Assembly (NCBI GenBank): GCA_016201065.1
Contig: JACQDL010000064.1
Span: 1-64,000, forward strand
Direction of reading: 5' to 3'
Length of the DNA stretch: 64,000 nucleotides
Source of the DNA: Actinomycetota bacterium
GTDB taxonomy: Bacteria > Actinomycetota > Actinomycetes > Mycobacteriales > JACQDL01
The position numbers were made by a program, and so were the translations under genes. Shown one piece after another: positions 1 to 10,228 of the stretch. The notes under the pieces were generated by a model. The model saw only the letters and a list, made by a program, of their open reading frames with translations, searched no databases and was not told the origin of the DNA. The stretch's first letter is position 1. Each line of letters starts with the position of its first letter.

Positions 1-110
1 CCGCTGGCGTGGCTGCCCGCAACGCATCGGCGATATCGTCGCCGCAGCCCTGGTCCTGCTTCACCACGAGCACCACCGCACCACCTGACCCACACCGGCA
101 ATCACACACC
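1..110 (+). mobile_element. End of an insertion sequence: C-terminus of a transposase gene (partial)
   Basis: A frame open from the window edge to a TGA at 86-88 ends with RIGDIVAAALVLLHHEHH and a few more residues. A short hydrophobic ALVLL run followed by His/Glu just before the stop resembles the tail of IS4/IS5-type DDE transposases of actinomycetes (recalled, not searched). The opposing radical SAM gene is cut off just beyond it, as an insertion would do. The rest of the element lies outside the window, so inverted repeats and target duplications cannot be tested. Confidence 0.45.
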
Positions 111-752
111 GTGAGCACCAGTTACGCGGAATGCCTCAATCTGCTTGTTGTCGATGCCCGAGTACGTGAACAATAGTGTCACCTTGACATGCCGAAGCGA
201 GTTGAGCCGGTCGATGTCCGCGGGCTTCATCTGGTGCCGCGTGATGACCAGGACGTGATTTGTCAGCTCACGATCGTCCAGGTCTTCGAGCACGGCGAGG
301 GTACGCGGCCGGACGTTCGGCAAGAACGGATCGGTGGCTCGGTTGAACACCTGCACGGGCGTGATGTGCGGCTGGAAATACCGATGACTCACCAGCTGCT
401 CGACCGCCTCGGCGTCCGTCATGAGGGCGCACGGTTGCCGCTGGTCCCACAGTCCGTAGGTGTGTCGGATGCAGTAAGCACAGTCCAGCGGGCAGCCCTG
501 AATGTGGTTCAGGCTCAGGCCACTCTTGCGGTACTCCACGGCTTCACGCGCGCGCTTCTGTAGCCGGCTGACTTCATCCCTGCTGAGCAGCGGAACATGC
601 GTGCTCACCTGCTCTCCCAACTTCCGAAAGGGCGGACGCGATTCGCCGTCCAGTTCCGCAGAGTAGAGCCGCAGGAAGCGGATCAACAGAAAGTTTCTTG
701 GTATTGCTAGAAATATCCCGATTAATCTAGCGCTCCGGAAATCACTCGCCAT
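102..752 (-). pseudogene. Radical SAM protein, 3'-truncated
   Basis: The 216-residue product carries a radical SAM cluster motif, CPLDCAYC (Cys87, Cys91, Cys94 counted from the ATG at 752), which would bind a 4Fe-4S cluster and S-adenosylmethionine. The following FNRATDPFLP and VLVITRH segments fit the start of a TIM barrel, but the protein stops soon after YSGIDNKQIE, about half to two thirds of a normal barrel. The last residues, RVTGAHGV, look like read-through into foreign DNA next to the insertion-sequence end. The start is uncertain: the ATG at 752 overlaps the upstream regulator by 11 bases, and the first 20 codons are AT-rich with a TTA codon (723-725) and rare AGA, ATA and CTA codons, so the true start could lie further in. 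Substrate unknown; probably inactive. Confidence 0.7.
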
Positions 753-1599
753 CTTCCGGCGGTTCGGGCGCAAGATCATCAATCACCCGGTTGATGATCA
801 CCCGCGCCGCTCGGCCGTAGCTGGCCACGGCTGCCAGCGAGTCGAAGATGCCACCGTAGCGGCTAATCTCTTGCGGCTGGGCCAGGTTCAGCTCGGCCGA
901 GAAGGTCTCGACCATTACGCGGTCGCTGTCGAGCAGCCAGAAGCCGTGCGCGGGGGCGACGACGTACGCCGTCTCGAAGCCGATGATGCCGAGCTTCACG
1001 TTGGGCAGCGCTGAGAAGGAAACCATCCGATCAAGCTGCCCAAGCATGACCTCTGGTGGGCACAGCCGGTAGCGCAAAGCTGCTTCGGTCAGCACGAAGT
1101 GAAACCGCTTGTCCGGCCGGTAGAGGATCTCTTGCCGCTGGATGCGAGCCTTCACCGCCTCGTTGATGTCGTTGCGCACCTGAAACACGGTGATGCTTTG
1201 GGCGAAGCGTGCACGCGCGTACTCGGCCGTTTGCAGAAGACCGGGAACGAAGGTGGACTCGAACGCGCGGAACAGCCGCGTCGTGGCATCCAGCTCCGCG
1301 ATTTCGGTCTGATGTTGCTTCAGCCCGGTCTTGAGCTGTCGATGCCATTCGGCGTGTTGCACTTCGAGCGTGTGCAGCGAGGCGAGCAGGGCTTCTGTCT
1401 CGCCTTCGCTGTTCGTCGCCCGCGTCCAACCCCCGATGTCGTCATCTGTCGGCGTCTGCCGGCCATTCTCCAGCTTGGACACCTTGGACGGCGGCCACGA
1501 CAACGACTCCGCGAGCCGCCGACCGCTCATGTCGGCCTGTTGGCGCAGCTCACGGAGTCGCTTGCCGAGCGCGCCGCGCGCCTCGTGCACGCTAGTCAC
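742..1599 (-). CDS. Scr1-type helix-turn-helix regulator (XRE HTH + DUF5753)
   Basis: The 285-residue protein has an N-terminal XRE helix-turn-helix (GKRLRELRQQADMSGRRLAE ... SKVSKLENGRQTP, about residues 10-55) and a C-terminal DUF5753 region with the hallmark VPGLLQTAEYARA. This architecture is that of Scr1-like regulators, which typically pair with small DUF397-type partners. The GTG at 1599 is chosen because an AGGA lies 9-10 bases upstream and the DUF6879 stop is 11 bases away, so the two genes are coupled. Downstream is the truncated radical SAM gene. It probably controls its own cluster; ligand and operator are unknown. Confidence 0.85.
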   Translation of the reverse strand: MTSVHEARGALGKRLRELRQQADMSGRRLAESLSWPPSKVSKLENGRQTPTDDDIGGWTRATNSEGETEALLASLHTLEVQHAEWHRQLKTGLKQHQTEIAELDATTRLFRAFESTFVPGLLQTAEYARARFAQSITVFQVRNDINEAVKARIQRQEILYRPDKRFHFVLTEAALRYRLCPPEVMLGQLDRMVSFSALPNVKLGIIGFETAYVVAPAHGFWLLDSDRVMVETFSAELNLAQPQEISRYGGIFDSLAAVASYGRAARVIINRVIDDLAPEPPEDGE

Positions 1600-1609
1600 G
1601 CCGGTCGTC

Positions 1610-2101
1610 CTATTCGGTGGCAAAGTCGTCCCGTCGCATGGCACGATGCCAGGCGGCATCGCGCCAGTAGTTGTGCTGCACGATCAGGGCTGGGTCTTCA
1701 ATGATCTCGCCGCCGAGGAAGTTCTCAGCCTCGTCGAAATGCATTCGCACCAGCTTGCACGAGTCGAACAGCCAGTAGTCGTAGTCCGGCAGGCCCGCGG
1801 CTTCGTCCCGTCTCAGGTAGCGGATCTCCTCACCGACCGCGCTGGTGTGTCCGGAGCAAAATATCGCAAATCGGCTGTAGTCGGTCAGTGGCATGGTCAC
1901 CACTCGCACGCGGGCGAAGCGGCGCCCTGCCGCCGTCGCTTCGCGGATCATGATCAGCCAGTTCTGGAACCAGCTCATGCCGACCGGCTCACCCGAGACG
2001 AACTGCCGCAGCGCCTCCGTCTCGTTGGCGGACCTGTAGTGGTCGCGCGTCTCTAGCCGGAAGGCGGTGTGTTCGAAGCTGCGGAAGAGCTGGCTGAACA
2101 C
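1610..2101 (-). CDS. DUF6879 family protein
   Basis: The 163-residue protein starts at GTG and has the features of DUF6879: an N-terminal RSFEHTAFRLETRDHY, a central GEPVGMSWFQNWLIMIREAT, a basic strand RRFARVRVVTMPLTDY and an acidic DYDYWLFDS. The family is abundant in actinomycetes, is nearly always beside an Scr1/DUF5753 regulator, and has no established biochemical role. The gene lies between a broken small-protein gene (gap 17 bases) and the regulator (gap 10 bases), indicating one transcript. The Trp/Tyr-rich core and lack of a signal peptide suggest a soluble cytoplasmic protein. Identification is by recognised motifs only. Confidence 0.75.
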   Translation of the reverse strand: MFSQLFRSFEHTAFRLETRDHYRSANETEALRQFVSGEPVGMSWFQNWLIMIREATAAGRRFARVRVVTMPLTDYSRFAIFCSGHTSAVGEEIRYLRRDEAAGLPDYDYWLFDSCKLVRMHFDEAENFLGGEIIEDPALIVQHNYWRDAAWHRAMRRDDFATE

Positions 2102-2118
2102 GGGTCCGATGAGCAGGC

Positions 2119-2352
2119 TCAGCGCTCCTCCGCCGGCGAGTAGCTGCGCACGTAGAACTTGAGCACATCCTCGGGGATCTCGATGATGGCGTCGCCTTCG
2201 GGCACCGGGCCGATGTCGGCCAACGCCTGGGGGTCGGTCACGACCCAGCCCTGCGCGATGTAGGTCTTGCGATCGGTACGGTCGGTGGCGAACAGCGTGG
2301 GTGACTGGCCTTACTGGGAAGCGGGATCTTTGCCAAGAAAGCGGACGTGCAT
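2119..2352 (-). pseudogene. Small partner protein of the DUF6879 cluster, broken by an in-frame stop
   Basis: Reading from the ATG at 2352 gives MHVRFLGKDPASQ, then TAA at 2311-2313, and in the same frame GQSPTLFATDRTDRKTYIAQ and on to a normal TGA at 2119-2121. Without the stop this is a 77-codon gene ending EIPEDVLKFYVRSYSPAEER. The N-terminal VRFLGKDP, the SPTLFATDR box and the GWVVTDP box resemble the short proteins found upstream of DUF6879 genes in actinomycetes (from memory). No good internal start with a ribosome site is visible after the stop. It lies 17 bases before the DUF6879 gene, so it is the natural first gene of that operon. A sequencing error at the TAA would restore it. Confidence 0.65.
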
Positions 2353-2440
2353 CGTGCCTCCGTTGCTAGAAATTTGGCGAACCGTTCTCGGTAATGGTGG
2401 CGGACTGGGACGAGGCCGTCAACTGTCCGGACCTCGGGAA

Positions 2441-2523
2441 CCGGGTCCTCCTGCACGTCCCAGTTCCACTCCCGACCGGCCCGCCCCATCGCTGCGGCTC
2501 GCTCCGGGTCGGCGAGCAGGCCA
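2441..2523 (-). repeat. Duplicated 3' fragment of the glycosyltransferase gene
   Basis: This stretch repeats 2650-2746, the 3' part of the glycosyltransferase gene, almost base for base. Translated, it reads GLLADPERAAAMGRAGREW then NWDVQ. It lacks 15 bases that encode VEREW in the intact copy; that loss lies between two copies of REW and is easily explained by slippage or recombination. The flanks share no further similarity with the gene. The fragment sits between the broken small gene and the intact glycosyltransferase, has no credible start and is probably untranslated. It marks a rearrangement joint. Confidence 0.8.
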
Positions 2524-2625
2524 CGACCCGGGAGGGCGACCGGGTGGATGTCTTCACGTCGGGCGGGGCCCTCAGTGCCTTCGGCACCGGCCCGTAGCGC
2601 GTATGTATCTGGCCTGGAAGTCGGG

Positions 2626-3747
2626 TCAGCCGGCCAGCAGGCGGGCCAGCCGGGTCGCCTGCACGTCCCAGTTCCACTCGCGCTCCACCCACTCCCGGCC
2701 GGCCCGCCCCATCGCCGCGGCTCGCTCCGGGTCGGCGAGCAGGCCAGCCACCCGCTCGGCAACCGCCGCCACCGACCGGCCGGACACGACGTACCCGGTC
2801 CGTCCCTCCAGCACCGCCTCGGGGGCGCCCCCGGAGTCCCCGGCCACGACCGGCAGACCGCTGGCCGACGCCTCCAGGAAGACGATGCCGAGACCCTCAA
2901 CATCCAGCCCACCACGGCGGGTCCGGCACGGCATCGCGAACACGTCACCCGCCGCGAAGTGGGCCGGCAGCTCCTCCCACGGCACCGACCCGGTGAACAC
3001 CACGTCGTCGGCGACGCCCTCCTGCGCGGCCCACCGCCGCAGGCGCGGCATGTCGGGGCCGCCACCCACCAGCAGCAACGCCGCGTCGGGGACCCTGCGG
3101 CGGATCTCCGGCAGGGCGCGGATCAGGACGTCCTGCCCCTTTCGGGGCACCAGCCGGGACACGCACACCACGGTCGGCCGGTCGGCCAGCCCAAGCCGAC
3201 GACGGACCGCGCCGCCATCCACACCGGGATGGAACGCCGCCGTGTCGACCCCCGGTGGCACCCACTCCAGCCGGACCCGCCGGCCCAGTCCCCGCGCGAG
3301 CAGCCGTCGGGTGTACTCACCGAGGTAGGTCACCACATCGACGTCGCGGGCGATCCGGCGCAGCACCTGGCGGGCGCCGGGCAGCATCGCCCAGCCGGTC
3401 TCGTGCCCGTGGGTGGAGGCCACGAACCGCTTCACCCCGGCCGAGCGCAGGCCGCGGGCCAGCAACCCGAGGGGCGCCGCCGCCCCGAACCACACGGTGT
3501 CGCAGCCGTGGTCCCGGGCCACCTCCCGCAGCCGGCGGGCCACCTCCGGGGTCGGCAGCAGCAGGCTGGTCGGGTGCCGGATCACCTCGAACGGCTGCGC
3601 ACCATCGAACGCCGCCGCGCCCTGCCAGTTCGAGGCGTACACCACGATCGATCCGGGCGGCTGGCGCACGGCGAGCTGGTGCACGAACGCCTGGATGCCG
3701 CCAGCCCTGGGCGGGAAGTCGTTGGTCACCACCAGGGTCCGGCTCAC
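2626..3747 (-). CDS. GT4 glycosyltransferase, PimB'-like mannosyltransferase
   Basis: The 373-residue protein is a GT-B fold glycosyltransferase of family GT4. The N-terminal domain begins TLVVTNDFPPRAGGIQAFVH with STHGHE near residue 111. The nucleotide-sugar domain has VSRLVPRKGQ (196-205) and the E-x7-E element in EGLGIVFLEA (Glu284, Glu292). The closest recalled family is PimB', which adds a GDP-mannose-derived mannose to phosphatidylinositol monomannoside at the inner face of the membrane; the exact acceptor is inferred. The GTG start at 3747 overlaps the stop of the M48 gene (GTGA), so the two are coupled. Part of its 3' end is duplicated just downstream. Confidence 0.85.
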   Translation of the reverse strand: MSRTLVVTNDFPPRAGGIQAFVHQLAVRQPPGSIVVYASNWQGAAAFDGAQPFEVIRHPTSLLLPTPEVARRLREVARDHGCDTVWFGAAAPLGLLARGLRSAGVKRFVASTHGHETGWAMLPGARQVLRRIARDVDVVTYLGEYTRRLLARGLGRRVRLEWVPPGVDTAAFHPGVDGGAVRRRLGLADRPTVVCVSRLVPRKGQDVLIRALPEIRRRVPDAALLLVGGGPDMPRLRRWAAQEGVADDVVFTGSVPWEELPAHFAAGDVFAMPCRTRRGGLDVEGLGIVFLEASASGLPVVAGDSGGAPEAVLEGRTGYVVSGRSVAAVAERVAGLLADPERAAAMGRAGREWVEREWNWDVQATRLARLLAG

Positions 3748-5018
3748 GGTGCGGTCACCTCGTGCAGGCGGGCCCAGTCGCGGGCCAGCGCGATCCGTTC
3801 CGGACCGGTCGGGTGGTCGGCGAAGAGCCCGTAGATGATCGGGTTCGGGTCCAGGTCGGAGAGGTTGGTGACGGACAACCGGCGTTGCATGGCGATGAAG
3901 CCGGCTGGGTCGCCGGTCAGGTCGAGGGCGTGCACGTCGGCGCGGGCCTCGATCCGCCGGGAGACCATGGCGGTCACCGGGCCGATCAACAGCGAGGCCA
4001 GCGACAGCACGAACAGCAGCAGCGCCACCGACCTCGGGTCGCCGAGCCCGCCAACCCCGGCCCGGCGGAGCAACCACCCCCACCCGAACAGCAGGTAGGC
4101 CCCGCAGCTCGCGGCTGCCACGGCCAGCGCCCCGACCACGGTGCCGAAGAGCACGTCGTTCCGCTTGGCGTGGCCGAGCTCGTGGGCGACCACAAGCCGG
4201 ACCTCCTCCGGCGGCGCCGAGGAGAGCAGCGTGTCGTACACGACGATCCGCCGGGTGGCGCCGAAGCCGGACACGTAGGCGTTCAGTGCCGTGGTACGCC
4301 GCGAGGCGTCGGCGACCAGCACGTCGGTGACGGGCACCCCATCGGCTCGCGCGAGCTCCAGCAACGACGTGCGCAGCGCGCCCGCCGGCATCGGGGTGAA
4401 CCGGTTGAACACCGGCTCCACCAGCACCGGATAGACGAAGGACAGCAGGAGCACGAGCGCCGCACCGCCGGTCGCGGCCCACCACCACCACGTGCGCGGG
4501 GCGGCCCGGACCACGCCGTACAGCCCGACCAGGACCACCGAGGTGATCCCGGCGCTCAACCCGAAACCCTTGACCGAGTCGAGCAGCCAGCCGCCCCAGC
4601 CCTGGGTGGACAGGCCGTAGCGGCGCAGCACGGTCTGCCCGTACGCGGCGAACGGCATCGTGACCAGCCGACCGACCATCCCGAGCAGCAACCCACCGAG
4701 AAGGACCTGCCAGACCCACCCGCCACCGAACGGCCGGGCCGCGGCGCCGATCAGCCGGCCGCCCAGCGGGGTGAGGCCGAGCGCACCAGCGACGACCAGC
4801 GAGAGCGCCAGCGCGGTGTAGGCGCCGGGACGGAGCAGGTTGTGGAAGGCGTTCTCGCGGGCGATCTGCGCCTGGGTGAAGTCGAGCGCCGGCTGCACCG
4901 GTCTCGGTCCACCGGGCGGGGTGTCCAGGGTCCGCCACGGTGTGCCCAGCGCGAGCACCGCGAGCACCGCGACGCCGAGCACCACCAGCCCCACGGCCGC
5001 CCCACGGTTGCCTGCCAT
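3744..5018 (-). CDS. M48 family membrane zinc metalloprotease (CAAX protease 1-like)
   Basis: The protein has several hydrophobic segments and the zinc motif HELGH (about residues 279-283), with the likely third ligand Glu in RRIEARADVHA (near 357). An N-terminal membrane segment, a CAAX-protease-1-type N-terminal region and the YVSGFGATRRIVVYDT strand before the active site are typical of the STE24/HtpX clan. It is an integral membrane protease, possibly acting in membrane-protein quality control; no substrate is shown. The ATG at 5018 follows GAGGGG at 11 bases; a GTG four codons upstream (5030) is the alternative. A strong hairpin separates it from the upstream NlpC/P60 gene, and its stop overlaps the glycosyltransferase start. 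Confidence 0.85.
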   Translation of the reverse strand: MAGNRGAAVGLVVLGVAVLAVLALGTPWRTLDTPPGGPRPVQPALDFTQAQIARENAFHNLLRPGAYTALALSLVVAGALGLTPLGGRLIGAAARPFGGGWVWQVLLGGLLLGMVGRLVTMPFAAYGQTVLRRYGLSTQGWGGWLLDSVKGFGLSAGITSVVLVGLYGVVRAAPRTWWWWAATGGAALVLLLSFVYPVLVEPVFNRFTPMPAGALRTSLLELARADGVPVTDVLVADASRRTTALNAYVSGFGATRRIVVYDTLLSSAPPEEVRLVVAHELGHAKRNDVLFGTVVGALAVAAASCGAYLLFGWGWLLRRAGVGGLGDPRSVALLLFVLSLASLLIGPVTAMVSRRIEARADVHALDLTGDPAGFIAMQRRLSVTNLSDLDPNPIIYGLFADHPTGPERIALARDWARLHEVTAP

Positions 5019-5072
5019 CCGGCGTGTCACCCCTCGCCGCGCATCCTATGCGCCATCCCCGCCCGGAAAGAC

Positions 5073-5108
5073 GGTGCGGGGCGGGTGGCACGCCACCCGC
5101 CCCGCACC
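5073..5108 (-). terminator. Strong hairpin between the NlpC/P60 and M48 genes
   Basis: Two 17-base arms (5073-5089 and 5092-5108) are perfectly complementary with only AC between them, so the real loop forms from the innermost pairs. The stem is almost all G-C. It starts 19 bases after the NlpC/P60 stop and lies 55 bases before the M48 start. No U-tract follows on either strand, which is common in high-GC actinobacteria. Confidence 0.75.
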
Positions 5109-5126
5109 GCTGCTGCGCCGCGCTGG

Positions 5127-6155
5127 TCAGCCGACCCGGGTTGCCCCGACATAGCTGCCCCACCGCACCGCGGCGTACTTCACGGGTTGGCCCGAGGTCG
5201 GCGCCTCGATCATGACCCCGTTGCCAACATAGATCGCGACGTGACTGATCGGGCTGTAGAAGAACAGCAGATCGCCCGGCGCGAGGTTGCTCCTGTCGAC
5301 GTGCGTCCCGTAGGTGTACTGCTCGCGTGAGGAGTGCGGCAACGAGACACCCGCCTTCCCCCAAACCACCATGGTCAGGCCGGAGCAGTCGTAGACGTCC
5401 GGTCCGGCCCCACCCCACACGTACATGTGCGGTGGATCGGCGTTCGCGATCACCTTGGCCGCGTTCACGGCGGTCTGTGCGGCCGCCGAGTTGGCCGGCG
5501 GCAGGTTCCCGGGGTCGATCGCGGCGTTGACACCGCCCATCCTGGCCCGTTCCTGGGCGGACAGCCGGTTGTACAGCGTGGTCCAGGTGGCCTGCTGCTG
5601 CTTCAGGGCAGCCATCTGGGTATTCAGATCGGTGGCCTTCGCCTGCGCGGCGCGGACCGCCGCCTCGGCGTCAGCCTTTGCCCTGTCGAGGCCGGACTTC
5701 GCCTCACCGACCTTCGCGATCATCGTCGAGCGCTGGGCCGAGACCCGGTCGAGCGCGGACAGCTGGTCGAGGAAGTTCTGCGGGGAGTCGCTGGACAGGA
5801 ACGCGGCGAACTCACCGAACGGCGCGCTCATGTAGACGCCCGCGACCATCTTCCTGACCTGGCCGACCATCGCCTCGTACTGGCTGTCGATCTTCTGTGC
5901 GTTGCGTTGGGCCGCGCTGGCCTTGGCCTTGGCCTTGTCCAGCGTGACCTTGGCGTACAGGGTTTGCTCGTTCATCGCGTCGAGTTGCTGGGCCAGCTTC
6001 TGGACCTGCTCGGCCGCCTGGGCCGACGTCTGCGGGGTCGCAGTCGTCGTAGGCGCTGCCTGGCTGGCGCCGGGCAGCATGGCGAGGGTGAGGGCTGACA
6101 CAGCGGAAACGACGGCGAGACGGGCTAGGCGCGGAGTGTGCCTGTTGCTCGCCAC
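5127..6155 (-). CDS. Secreted NlpC/P60 peptidoglycan endopeptidase with coiled-coil N-terminus
   Basis: The 342-residue protein begins with a Sec signal peptide (basic start, hydrophobic VVSAVSALTLAML, cleavage near ASQAA at 30-34). Residues 45-205 are a long Ala/Gln/Lys-rich coiled coil. The C-terminal NlpC/P60 domain has Cys257 in DCSGL, His305 in SHVAIYVGN and Glu317 as the third active-site residue, as in RipA-type DL-endopeptidases that cut peptide stems during growth and division. The GTG start has AAGGAG ten bases upstream. The mRNA leader carries a c-di-AMP riboswitch, so expression should follow this second messenger. A strong terminator follows the gene, making it monocistronic. Confidence 0.92.
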   Translation of the reverse strand: MASNRHTPRLARLAVVSAVSALTLAMLPGASQAAPTTTATPQTSAQAAEQVQKLAQQLDAMNEQTLYAKVTLDKAKAKASAAQRNAQKIDSQYEAMVGQVRKMVAGVYMSAPFGEFAAFLSSDSPQNFLDQLSALDRVSAQRSTMIAKVGEAKSGLDRAKADAEAAVRAAQAKATDLNTQMAALKQQQATWTTLYNRLSAQERARMGGVNAAIDPGNLPPANSAAAQTAVNAAKVIANADPPHMYVWGGAGPDVYDCSGLTMVVWGKAGVSLPHSSREQYTYGTHVDRSNLAPGDLLFFYSPISHVAIYVGNGVMIEAPTSGQPVKYAAVRWGSYVGATRVG

Positions 6156-6894: not shown

Positions 6895-8202
6895 TCAGCC
6901 TCGCCCGAGCCGGGCCAGCAAGGCGGTCGAGGCGACCGGGTACGCGCCCGAACGTCTGACCCCGTCGGCGACCTCACGATCGGCCGAGACCACGGCGACC
7001 GGGCGGCCGAACGGCTCGGCGGCGACCAACCGCCGGATCAGCTCGTCGGCAGACTGGCCGGACGGGCTGAACAGCACCCGAACCCCGCGGGGCGCCGGCG
7101 GCATGGCGGGCGGCCGGTCCGCGCCGTCGTACACGCAGGTCACCTCGGCACCGGTGCGGGCCGCGAGCACGGCAAGCCCCTGGGTGAGGCGGCTACGTTG
7201 AGTAGCTAACGGTAGATCGCCATAGCCGGTCTTTGTCACGTTGTAGCCGTCCACGATCAGGTGCACCCGCGGCAGCTCCAGCAGCCGGTCGAGGAAGCCA
7301 AGATCGTCACCACGGGGACCGATCCGGGGTGGGAGGACGGCCTGGTCGGCCTCCGCCACCCGGCCGTCGGCCGTGACCAGGTCACCGGGACGGTGCTCGG
7401 TGGGGGCGACCGCGAGCTCGCGGCGCAGCCCCTGCACGGCCCCCGCCACCGTCTCCAGCAGCAACCACAACCTCGCCTCGTCCGTGTTGCGGGCGACCCG
7501 GTCCGCCCTGCGCGCCGCGTCCGCGGCGTCCCCGGCCTCGGCGAGCCGCTGCTTCAGCCGACGGATCTCCGCCTGGGTTGCCGCGTCGGTGGCCGCATCA
7601 TGCTGCCGCAGTTCGGCCAGCGCCTGGACCGCCTCGTCCCGGGCCCGCTCGGCCGACCGGAGCTGACCGGTCAGCTGACGCAACTGCCGGCGCAGCGCGT
7701 CACCGGCCTCGCCGGCCGCGGTAGCGGCCTCCTCCGCCCTGCTGGCCTGCGCGCGCAGCTCCGACCTGGCCTGGTCGAGCTCACCACGCAACGCGCTGAC
7801 GAGCTCGTCCCGGTCGGCGGACCGCAATCGCTCGGCCCGCTCGGCCAGCGCGCGCTCGGCCCGCTCGACGTGACCGGACCACCCGTCGGGACGGATCAGG
7901 TAGGCGGCCACCGCGAGCTCGACCGGATCCGCCGCGGCTGGCACGACCGCCTGCCGGACCGCCTCGGCGATCGCCGGCTGCTCGCGCTCCACCGCCTCAG
8001 CGACCCGCAGCCGGAACAGTGGCTCGGTCTCCAGCGCCGCCGCCAGCGCGGACCTGGCGAGCCTCGCCCGCTTGGCGGGGGCGAACCGCGCCGCTGCCCG
8101 TAATGACGCCGGCACCTCATCCGGGGGCAGCCGGCCCAGGGCGTCCGCAGCCAGTGCGATGACCCGTTGCCGCACCGGCTCCGGCAGCAGCGTGCTGGAC
8201 AC
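6895..8202 (-). CDS. NYN-domain (YacP-like) putative RNase with long coiled coil
   Basis: The 435-residue protein has a helical N-terminal region, an Ala/Arg/Glu-rich coiled coil (about 115-240) and a C-terminal NYN/PIN-like domain: HLIVDGYNVTK (Asp318 to Asn321), TCVYDGADRP (358-363) and VVSADREV (404-411) supply the conserved acidic residues. NYN domains are metal-dependent RNases; YacP/Rae1 cuts mRNA in the ribosome A site in Bacillus. The coiled coil is an addition to that core. The GTG start at 8202 follows an AGGGGG. It is divergent from the DEDD-GIY-YIG gene with 186 bases between starts. RNA cleavage is inferred from the family. Confidence 0.85.
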   Translation of the reverse strand: MSSTLLPEPVRQRVIALAADALGRLPPDEVPASLRAAARFAPAKRARLARSALAAALETEPLFRLRVAEAVEREQPAIAEAVRQAVVPAAADPVELAVAAYLIRPDGWSGHVERAERALAERAERLRSADRDELVSALRGELDQARSELRAQASRAEEAATAAGEAGDALRRQLRQLTGQLRSAERARDEAVQALAELRQHDAATDAATQAEIRRLKQRLAEAGDAADAARRADRVARNTDEARLWLLLETVAGAVQGLRRELAVAPTEHRPGDLVTADGRVAEADQAVLPPRIGPRGDDLGFLDRLLELPRVHLIVDGYNVTKTGYGDLPLATQRSRLTQGLAVLAARTGAEVTCVYDGADRPPAMPPAPRGVRVLFSPSGQSADELIRRLVAAEPFGRPVAVVSADREVADGVRRSGAYPVASTALLARLGRG

Positions 8203-8309
8203 CCTGAGACCCCCTTGACACTCCACGTCGCCCGCACCCGCGTGGGCGATGTGGGGTCGAGGGTAGCCAGCAAGGTCAACGCTCGGCGCGGACCGCCGAT
8301 CGGACCAGC

Positions 8310-8352
8310 CCCGGACGCCCCCCCGGACGCCCCCGGATGGCCCCCGGACGGC
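8310..8352 (+). repeat. Short CCCCGGACG-type direct repeats in the divergent promoter region
   Basis: Between the NYN and DEDD-GIY-YIG genes, four near-copies of CCCCGGACG (one reads CCCCGGATG) occur at roughly 10-12 base spacing. They lie 40-80 bases before the GTG chosen for the plus-strand gene. They may be a protein-binding array or simple GC-rich slippage; nothing decides between the two. Confidence 0.4.
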
Positions 8353-8388
8353 GAGATTCCGTCGGTGCCGGTCGGTACCGTCCACGAC

Positions 8389-10209
8389 GTGTCCTCGACC
8401 GCCACCACGTTCGTGCAGGCGTCGTTCGACGAGCTGGGCGAGCCACTGCGGGAGATGACCTTCTGCGTCGTCGACCTGGAGACCACCGGCGTGGCCCCGG
8501 ACTCCGCGGAGATCACCGAGATCGGCGCGGTCAAGGTGCGTGGTGGCGCGGTCCAGGCCGAGTTCCACTCCCTGCTCGACCCGGGTGGTCCGATCCCCGC
8601 GTTCATCACGGTGCTGACCGGCATCACCGACGCCATGGTGGTCAGCGCGCCCCGGCTGCCCGCGGTGCTCCCGGCGTTCCTGGAGTTCGCCCGGGGATCG
8701 GTGCTGGTCGCCCACAACGCGCCGTTCGACGTGGGGTTCCTCAAGGTCGCCTGCGCCCGGCACGGCTACCCGTGGCCCGGACTCCGGGTGTTGGACACCG
8801 CGATGCTGGCCCGACGGGTCCTGGTCCGCGATGAGGCGCCCAACTGCAAGCTCGCGACGCTGGCCCGGCTCTTCGGTGCCGGCACGACACCCGACCACCG
8901 GGCGCTGTCCGACGCCCGCGCGACCGTCGACGTGCTGCACGGGCTGCTGGAGCGGGTGGGCGCGCTGGGCGTGCAGTCCTACCAGGAGCTGGTCACCTAC
9001 AGCGGCCTGGTCCGGCCCGAGCGGCGGCGCAAGCGGCACCTGGCCGAACCGTTGCCACACGCCCCCGGCGTCTACCTGTTCCGCGATGCCGAGGGCCGGC
9101 CGCTGTACGTGGGCAAGAGCAACGATCTGCGGAACCGGGTGCGGTCCTACTTCACCGCCGGGGAGACCCGGTCCCGGATGGCCGAGATGGTGGGGCTCGC
9201 CGAGCGGGTCGACGCGGTGGTCTGCGCGCACGGCCTGGAGGCGGAGGTGCGTGAGCTGCGGCTGATCGCCGAGCACAAGCCGCGGTACAACCGGCGGTCG
9301 AAGTTCCCCGAGCGTGCGGTGTGGGTCACGGTCACGGTCGAGCCGTTCCCCCGGCTGTCGATCATCCGCACGCCGCGCGGACCCGCCGCCGAGGGCGGCA
9401 GCTACCTCGGGCCGTTCGGGTCGCGCCGGCTCGCCGAGCAGGCCGTGGCCGCCGTGTACGAGGCGCTGCCGTTGCGGCAGTGCGGGGGGCGGCTCCCGCT
9501 GACCCCCCGGCGGTCGGCGTGCGCCCTGGTCGAGCTCGGCCGGTGCGGCGGTCCCTGCGTGGGCGCGGAGAGCAGGACCGCGTACGGCGAACACGTCGCC
9601 ACGTTCAGCTCCGCGGTCGCCGGCGACCTGCGGCCGCTGGTGGAGCCGGTGCTGCACCGGATCGAGGTGCTGTCCGGTCAGCGCCGGTACGAGGACGCGG
9701 CCACGCTGCGGGATCGGCTGGCGGTCCTGGTCCGCGCCGCCGACCGGGTCCAGCGGCTGACCACGCTCGCCGGGATCGCGAGCCTCGTCGCGGCCCGCCC
9801 GGCGGGCGCCGGCGGATGGGAGCTGGCCCTGGTCCGGCACGGGCGGCTGGCCGGCGCCTCGACGGTACCCCAGGGCGCCGCGCCCCGGCCCTACGTCGAC
9901 GCGCTGCTGGCCACCGGGCAGACCGTGCTGCCGGCCACCGGGCAGACCGTGCTGCCGGCCGACCCGCCAGCCTTCGGCACGGTGCCGTACCTCGCCGGTG
10001 GTGTGGAGGAGAGCGAGTGCGTGCAGCGCTGGCTCGACGGCCCGGGGGTGCGGCTGGTGGAGCTGGACGGCCAGTGGGCGACGCCACCGCACGGCGGTGG
10101 CCGGTGGCGGCGCTGGCTGGAGCTCGCCACCGCCGGGCAGCGGGGCCAGGTCGACCCGTTCGCGGACCGGCGGCGACTGGTTCCCGGCCAGACCCGGACA
10201 GGAACCTGA
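8389..10209 (+). CDS. DEDD exonuclease / UvrC-like GIY-YIG fusion protein
   Basis: About 606 residues. The N-terminal domain is a DnaQ-type 3'-5' exonuclease: VVDLETTG (Asp29, Glu31), AHNAPFD (Asp114) and DHRALSDA (His170, Asp175) give the full DEDDh set. It is followed by a GIY-YIG nuclease domain like the UvrC N-terminus (GVYLFRDAEGRPLYVGKSND, near 227-246) and a UVR-like helix pair (SGQRRYEDAATLRDRLAVL). The C-terminal RNase H-like half of true UvrC is absent. Such fusions are known in actinobacteria as DEDD exonuclease domain proteins and are probably repair enzymes. The GTG at 8389 is one of two plausible starts (8365 is the other); neither has a clear ribosome site. A 24-base tandem repeat lies near the 3' end. 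Confidence 0.87.
   Translation: MSSTATTFVQASFDELGEPLREMTFCVVDLETTGVAPDSAEITEIGAVKVRGGAVQAEFHSLLDPGGPIPAFITVLTGITDAMVVSAPRLPAVLPAFLEFARGSVLVAHNAPFDVGFLKVACARHGYPWPGLRVLDTAMLARRVLVRDEAPNCKLATLARLFGAGTTPDHRALSDARATVDVLHGLLERVGALGVQSYQELVTYSGLVRPERRRKRHLAEPLPHAPGVYLFRDAEGRPLYVGKSNDLRNRVRSYFTAGETRSRMAEMVGLAERVDAVVCAHGLEAEVRELRLIAEHKPRYNRRSKFPERAVWVTVTVEPFPRLSIIRTPRGPAAEGGSYLGPFGSRRLAEQAVAAVYEALPLRQCGGRLPLTPRRSACALVELGRCGGPCVGAESRTAYGEHVATFSSAVAGDLRPLVEPVLHRIEVLSGQRRYEDAATLRDRLAVLVRAADRVQRLTTLAGIASLVAARPAGAGGWELALVRHGRLAGASTVPQGAAPRPYVDALLATGQTVLPATGQTVLPADPPAFGTVPYLAGGVEESECVQRWLDGPGVRLVELDGQWATPPHGGGRWRRWLELATAGQRGQVDPFADRRRLVPGQTRTGT
9911..9958 (+). repeat. 24-bp tandem repeat, two perfect copies, inside the DEDD-GIY-YIG gene
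   Basis: Positions 9911-9934 and 9935-9958 are identical and in frame, giving ATGQTVLP twice. The copies are perfect, so the duplication is recent or actively maintained. It lies in the poorly conserved C-terminal region and keeps the frame. Confidence 0.95.
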
Positions 10210-10228
10210 CCTACGACGTACGAGGTGT

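What the first reader, a model, noticed from the sequence alone, without database searches (positions are those of the whole stretch)
102..2352. Radical SAM / DUF6879 / Scr1-type regulator / small-protein cluster of unknown function
Four tightly packed minus-strand genes (small protein, DUF6879, XRE-DUF5753 regulator, radical SAM) look like one transcript. DUF6879 has no known role, and pairing it with a radical SAM enzyme is suggestive of a modification or signalling system rather than plain regulation. Here the first and last genes are broken, so the strain may have lost it.
Basis: partly seen in the sequence, partly recalled or inferred. Interest (0 to 1): 0.6.

Follow-up and report, generated by a model that had tools for sequence, protein, structure and literature searches.

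The report
Regulated mobile radical-SAM nucleotide operon, IS-broken
The four genes are the front half of a rare, horizontally moving bacterial operon, here broken by a jumping gene, in which a small regulator set switches on a radical enzyme, a DNA-end-trimming enzyme and a nucleotide kinase that probably make an unusual nucleotide, perhaps against viruses.

Summary
Of 38 related loci from other species, 26 keep DUF6879-XRE(DUF5753)-radical SAM in this order, most with the small gene in front; four of five further loci sampled independently do too. The cluster continues beyond the window: radical SAM, DEDDh 3'-5' exonuclease, thymidylate-kinase-like kinase, often an aldo/keto reductase. In this genome the radical SAM gene is split by a multicopy IS; its second half, exonuclease and kinase are intact on contig C21. 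The small gene has a stop at codon 14.

Small protein, DUF6879 and XRE form a regulatory module that also occurs without the radical SAM gene. DUF6879 is predicted to be a PLD fold without the HKD catalytic motif; the small protein does not look like a RiPP substrate. Conserved dyads lie before the radical SAM gene and the small gene. Relatives on plasmids add a CMP-5-hydroxymethylase-like enzyme, NDK, MazG-like or dGTPase-like HD proteins. Some carriers lie beside Avs2, Gabija or Shedu genes.

Best reading: an inducible, mobile operon making a modified pyrimidine nucleotide, for defence or as an antimetabolite. Chemistry and purpose are unproven.

The parts
1..138 (-). End of a multicopy insertion sequence that interrupts the radical SAM gene; also the contig edge
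   Evidence: about 20 near-identical copies, many at contig ends; other IS end abuts the rest of the gene at the end of C21
139..608 (-). 5' half of the radical SAM gene (about 157 codons, CxxxCxxC present); second half at G000:C21:101491-102168, outside the window
   Evidence: tblastn to intact relatives, 80% identity; start set by relatives and an RBS-like GGGAG
688..715 (-). Putative operator of the radical SAM operon: TTTCTAGCAA-N5-AGAAACTTTCT
   Evidence: AGAA-N(2-3)-TTTCT in 18 of 26 radical SAM upstream regions against 0.25% of background windows; TTTCKAGMAA in 14 of 26 against 0.4%
742..1599 (-). XRE-family regulator with DUF5753 (Scr1/WhiJ type)
   Evidence: PF13560 46.6 bits, PF19054 121 bits; about 58-88% identical in linked loci
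1610..2101 (-). DUF6879 protein; predicted PLD fold without HKD motif, probable sensor subunit (inferred)
   Evidence: PF21806 181 bits; AlphaFold pLDDT 94.8; best matches Nuc Z 11.4, TrmBL2 Z 10.2; HKD in 0 of 15
2119..2352 (-). Small conserved gene, about 77 codons, with stop TAA at codon 14 (2313-2311): pseudogene in this strain
   Evidence: alignment of 25 relatives, 63% mean column identity, no stop in relatives
2363..2389 (-). Putative operator of the regulatory module: GAGAACGGTTC and TTTCTAGCAA just upstream of the small gene
   Evidence: GAGAA-N(2-3)-TTC[TG] in 13 of 24 small-gene upstream regions against 0.27% of background

Best explanation
The window holds the regulatory front and the first enzyme gene of a mobile two-part cassette, now decaying. 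Part 1 (small protein, DUF6879, XRE-DUF5753) is a switch: XRE binds GAGAA/TTCTC-like dyads before its own module and before the radical SAM gene; DUF6879, a PLD fold without catalytic motif that resembles the effector domain of TrmB, and the small protein tune XRE in response to a ligand. Part 2 (radical SAM, DEDDh 3'-5' exonuclease, NMP-type kinase, often aldo/keto reductase; in relatives also a CMP-5-hydroxymethylase-like enzyme, NDK, MazG-like or dGTPase-like HD protein) makes and handles a modified pyrimidine nucleotide. The radical SAM enzyme alters a nucleotide, the kinase (plus NDK) raises it to the triphosphate, and the proofreading-type exonuclease and NTP hydrolases remove it from host nucleic acid or pools. 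The likeliest use is an inducible antiviral or antimetabolite nucleotide. Shown by sequence: gene linkage, synteny, horizontal spread, breakage, dyads, domain identities. Predicted: the DUF6879 fold. Inferred: XRE binding, sensing, nucleotide substrate, defence use.
For: Linkage: DUF6879-XRE-radical SAM in 26 of 38 loci, most with the small gene; exonuclease next to radical SAM in 35 of 38, kinase in 31, reductase in 15. Independent sample: L087 and L088 keep the whole arrangement; L091 and L092 (one genome) join the same regulatory module to the other subtype with hydroxymethylase-like enzyme and NDK. Partners are nucleotide-directed: PF00929 exonuclease, PF02223/TIGR00041 kinase; relatives add NDK, MazG-like and dGTPase-like HD proteins, and a 'thymidylate synthase' far closer to CMP 5-hydroxymethylase (E 7e-73) than to thymidylate synthases (E 8e-14). 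Dyads before both transcripts, 18 of 26 against 0.25% background. DUF6879 = PLD fold resembling TrmB-type domains, HKD absent. Mobility: 39 plasmids, many mobilizable or conjugative; radical SAM tree conflicts with taxonomy. Defence context: Avs2 between XRE and radical SAM in Lentzea (E 5e-274), DUF5677 genes in that slot in others, GajA in a Frankia locus, Shedu and ABC-three-component genes on alphaproteobacterial plasmids. A WhiJ-type XRE regulator activating a neighbouring gene has a precedent in WhiJ9-iosA (PMC10294661).
Against: No chemistry or phage test exists. The radical SAM protein has no sequence match in the PDB even as a profile and a generic partial-barrel fold tied between PFL-activase and spore photoproduct lyase, so its substrate is unknown. 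Hydroxymethylase-like enzyme and NDK are absent from the window's own subtype. Most large flanking genes tested in actinobacterial loci were not defence hits (8 of 10). No rate of defence neighbours in control loci was measured, and plasmids carry many defence genes anyway. Annotators tie DUF6415, a neighbour on Streptomyces plasmids, to natural products.
Confidence: 0.45

Rival explanations
1. A biosynthetic operon for a nucleoside antibiotic or antimetabolite (mildiomycin- or bacimethrin-like logic), controlled by the abaA/whiJ type of regulators that govern secondary metabolism; the exonuclease and hydrolases give self-protection.
For: CMP-5-hydroxymethylase-like enzyme, NDK, MazG-like protein and reductase in Streptomyces plasmid versions, with HATPase and DUF6415 genes upstream; WhiJ/Scr1-type regulators act on development and antibiotics (PMC10294661, PMC6262351).
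Against: Compact 3-4 gene core, spread to Rhizobium, Labrenzia, Gluconobacter and Nostoc plasmids, defence neighbours; no transporter or resistance gene kept with the core.
Confidence: 0.27
2. A nucleic-acid repair cassette: a spore-photoproduct-lyase-like enzyme reverses a pyrimidine lesion, the exonuclease trims ends, the kinase salvages thymidylate; the regulatory module is damage-inducible.
For: Spore photoproduct lyase is among the top fold matches with 243 aligned residues; thymidylate-kinase-like partner.
Against: SPL is tied with PFL-activase and only about 10% identical; hydroxymethylase-like enzyme, NDK and reductase do not fit repair; very patchy distribution, 0 of 295 other genomes in a phylum sample.
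Confidence: 0.12
3. RiPP-type system: the small protein is the precursor that the radical SAM enzyme modifies.
For: A small gene sits in the same cluster as a radical SAM gene.
Against: Small protein conserved end to end with no leader/core split and no invariant Cys; occurs with DUF6879 away from any radical SAM gene; not found in radical SAM loci with other regulators (L025-L027, L032-L038).
Confidence: 0.03

Closest known systems
WhiJ-BldB(DUF397)-AbaA/IosA modules of Streptomyces (PMC10294661; Scr1-Scr2, PMC6262351)
   Same: XRE-type regulator, small partner protein and a neighbouring regulated gene; many paralogues per genome; WhiJ9 binds repeats before its target.
   Different: Partner here is not detectably DUF397; a PLD-fold DUF6879 stands where AbaA's HATPase would be; the linked genes are a multi-enzyme nucleotide-type operon.
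Prokaryotic viperins (radical SAM nucleotide dehydratases; PMC12926258, PMC9642334)
   Same: Radical SAM enzyme proposed to act on nucleotides; rare and patchy; some defence-gene neighbours.
   Different: Extra conserved C-terminal cysteines and constant exonuclease and kinase partners; viperin is only a middling fold match (Z 12) and no PADLOC profile matched.
MilA/BcmA CMP 5-hydroxymethylase pathways (mildiomycin, bacimethrin)
   Same: Relatives of the operon carry a MilA/BcmA-like enzyme (E 7e-73 to PDB 5jnh).
   Different: Absent from the window's own subtype; pathway names and details are from memory and were not compared here.
PA0069 / Rv2578c radical SAM families
   Same: Best, weak, NCBIfam matches of the radical SAM protein (18.7 and 17.4 bits).
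   Different: Far below the cut-offs of 360 and 430 bits.

Membership tests
Radical SAM superfamily | CxxxCxxC motif and partial TIM barrel | tested here: met
   C43/C47/C50 invariant in 31 sequences; fold matches to radical SAM enzymes Z 14-15; Pfam score 19.9 is under the 29.5 cut-off
WhiJ/BldB/AbaA module | XRE-type HTH with a DUF5753-type C-terminal domain | tested here: met
WhiJ/BldB/AbaA module | DUF397 partner | tested here: not met
   small protein: no Pfam hit; profile comparison with DUF397 probability 0.1%
PLD superfamily | PLD fold (DUF6879) | tested here: met
   predicted model: Foldseek E 5.7e-5; Nuc Z 11.4, rmsd 3.4, 126 aligned
PLD superfamily | HKD catalytic motif | tested here: not met
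   0 of 15 sequences
Prokaryotic viperin | Match to a defence-library profile | tested here: inconclusive
   no PADLOC family matched the radical SAM protein; fold alone does not decide
Prokaryotic viperin | Production of a ddh-nucleotide | not testable with these tools
   needs biochemistry
RiPP precursor plus radical SAM maturase | Precursor with leader and variable core | tested here: not met
   end-to-end conservation; occurs without radical SAM
DEDDh exonuclease | RNase_T domain | tested here: met
   PF00929 77.9 bits in L017; own-genome copy 71% identical, open frame, DxE motif present
dTMP kinase | Thymidylate kinase profile and P-loop | tested here: met
   TIGR00041 113 bits over cut-off 83 in L017; P-loop and DRY in own copy; substrate not tested
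CMP 5-hydroxymethylase (relatives only) | Closer in sequence to CMP 5-hydroxymethylases than to thymidylate synthases | tested here: met
   activity not tested

The most novel reading that the evidence does not exclude
A new class of nucleotide-based bacterial immunity: a radical SAM enzyme outside the viperin family makes a modified pyrimidine nucleotide poison, a dedicated proofreading-type exonuclease and NTP hydrolases protect the host, and a pseudo-PLD sensor with an XRE regulator switches it on.
Probability: 0.25. Interest if true: 0.88.

Novelty: new variant of a known kind. Interest (0 to 1): 0.62.

Why it matters
It gives DUF6879, a family with no assigned role and several copies per genome in many actinomycetes, a predicted fold, partners and candidate operators. 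It also defines a syntenic radical SAM-exonuclease-kinase operon, found in actinobacteria, alphaproteobacteria and in part on a cyanobacterial plasmid, that none of the searched family libraries names. If the nucleotide reading holds, it would be a second route, beside viperin, by which radical SAM chemistry makes bioactive nucleotides in bacteria.

Tried and rejected
Small protein as RiPP precursor: rejected. Small protein as DUF397: no support. Phage origin: no match in 50,697 phage records; six viral-contig hits exist and four of them carry the plasmid-type gene order, but their viral nature was not tested. Naming the radical SAM family through Pfam, NCBIfam, PHROGs or PDB sequence: nothing above cut-off. 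Rfam on 1-6000: nothing. Literature for DUF6879: none; for the gene combination: none, and the one paper with DUF5753 and radical SAM concerns graspetides; the library is open-access only. A clean IS target duplication was not found.

Full report
Observation. The four minus-strand genes are present. DUF6879 and DUF5753 are certain by Pfam. The radical SAM frame 102-782 overstates the gene: relatives start at the position of the GTG at 608, leaving about 133 bp between XRE and radical SAM. The small gene has a stop at codon 14. The radical SAM frame runs into the end of an IS with about 20 near-identical copies in the genome. The missing half of the gene, residues 161-386, lies at the end of contig C21 beside the other end of that IS. 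Next to it are an open exonuclease frame, an open thymidylate-kinase-like frame and a resolvase-like small gene. Only one N-terminal half and one C-terminal half exist in the genome, so this is most simply one gene split by an IS; a clean target duplication was not resolved.

Does the grouping recur? A scan of one genome per species with the radical SAM half gave 38 loci. Mapping the genes on them gives: DUF6879 and XRE immediately upstream of radical SAM in 26, most of these with the small gene; the small gene alone in one more (L012); exonuclease next to radical SAM in 35; kinase in 31; aldo/keto reductase in 15. The loci without the module (L025-L027, L032-L039) include ones with a different, TPR-type XRE gene nearby. 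An independent draw of 298 genomes from the order found the radical SAM gene in six others. The joining of the module to two different operon subtypes is the strongest evidence for a functional link.

The regulatory module. DUF6879 copies number five in the own genome and 2-11 in ten carrier genomes; in the own genome other copies sit with small-gene and XRE relatives and without radical SAM. So the module is general and the radical SAM operon is one of its clients. AlphaFold gives DUF6879 a PLD fold with mean pLDDT 94.8, matching Nuc (Z 11.4) and the TrmB/TrmBL2 effector domains (Z 9-10), without an HKD motif; a sensor role is inferred. The small protein is conserved along its length and is not detectably DUF397. 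Conserved dyads stand before both transcripts: AGAA-N(2-3)-TTTCT in 18 of 26 radical SAM upstream regions against 0.25% of background windows, GAGAA-N(2-3)-TTC[TG] in 13 of 24 small-gene upstream regions against 0.27%. The window keeps both. The patterns were chosen after looking at the same sequences, so the contrast is optimistic; in the new loci these patterns were found at the promoters only in L089, which repeats L004, so the operator is best supported within the closer relatives. A precedent for a WhiJ-type XRE regulator acting on its neighbour is WhiJ9-iosA (PMC10294661).

The enzyme operon. Plasmids carry the radical SAM gene in 39 records, from Streptomyces, Nocardia, Rhizobium, Sinorhizobium, Mesorhizobium, Agrobacterium, Labrenzia/Roseibium, Gluconobacter and Nostoc; about a dozen of these are only 25-27% identical. 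Streptomyces plasmids show hydroxymethylase-like-NDK-radical SAM-exonuclease-AAA kinase-reductase and often a MazG-like gene. Several alphaproteobacterial plasmids show radical SAM-exonuclease-kinase-HD protein, the HD protein being weakly dGTPase-like. The gene annotated thymidylate synthase is closest to CMP 5-hydroxymethylase (E 7e-73 against 8e-14 for the best thymidylate synthase; repeated with L091). The partners therefore point to nucleotides. The radical SAM protein itself has no PDB sequence relative and a generic fold; four further cysteines (C274, C295, C298, C306) are invariant and could hold a second cluster.

Spread and purpose. No other genome in an even draw over the phylum had the gene (0 of 295). 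In the tree, near-identical proteins come from different orders (Lentzea, Actinomadura, Actinokineospora, Streptomyces, Sinosporangium), which means horizontal transfer. A full Avs2 gene sits between XRE and radical SAM in L003; L013 and, weakly, L010 have DUF5677 genes in that slot, and L005 what looks like a disrupted relative of the L013 gene; GajA is near the module in L023; Shedu and ABC-three-component genes flank two Rhizobiaceae copies. Eight of ten large flanking proteins gave no defence hit. The defence reading is therefore suggestive, not shown; an antimetabolite pathway is the main rival.

Verdict. The finding is real and larger than reported; in this strain it is inactivated. The mechanism offered, an inducible operon making a modified pyrimidine nucleotide, is the best fit of gene content (confidence 0.45); the radical SAM substrate and the biological purpose need experiments.

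Noticed in passing
window 2440-2770: By eye, the stretch around 2450-2530 looks like a partial copy of the 3' end of the neighbouring glycosyltransferase gene (around 2655-2760).
   Followed up: no
window 1-138 and about 20 other places in G000: A multicopy IS end lies at many contig ends of this 3.65 Mb genome; it probably caused much of the assembly fragmentation.
   Followed up: partly
L060 (G000:C29) 7987-8544 and 9822-10218: Two near-identical segments (MGTTAEVIALLRAAVAAMEQVV...) flank another small-DUF6879-XRE module.
   Followed up: no
L060 5402-7706: A second small-DUF6879 pair sits beside a different XRE gene (TPR-like) instead of XRE-DUF5753.
   Followed up: no
L006 934-2602 and L007 2202-3981: An abaA/whiJ/bldB-like set (XRE, DUF397 and a third gene) lies directly upstream of the small-DUF6879-XRE module.
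   Followed up: no
L072 4595-7468: A distant radical SAM relative (27% identity) on a Streptomyces plasmid next to a MurA-like enolpyruvyl transferase and an HTH gene, perhaps another nucleoside pathway.
   Followed up: partly
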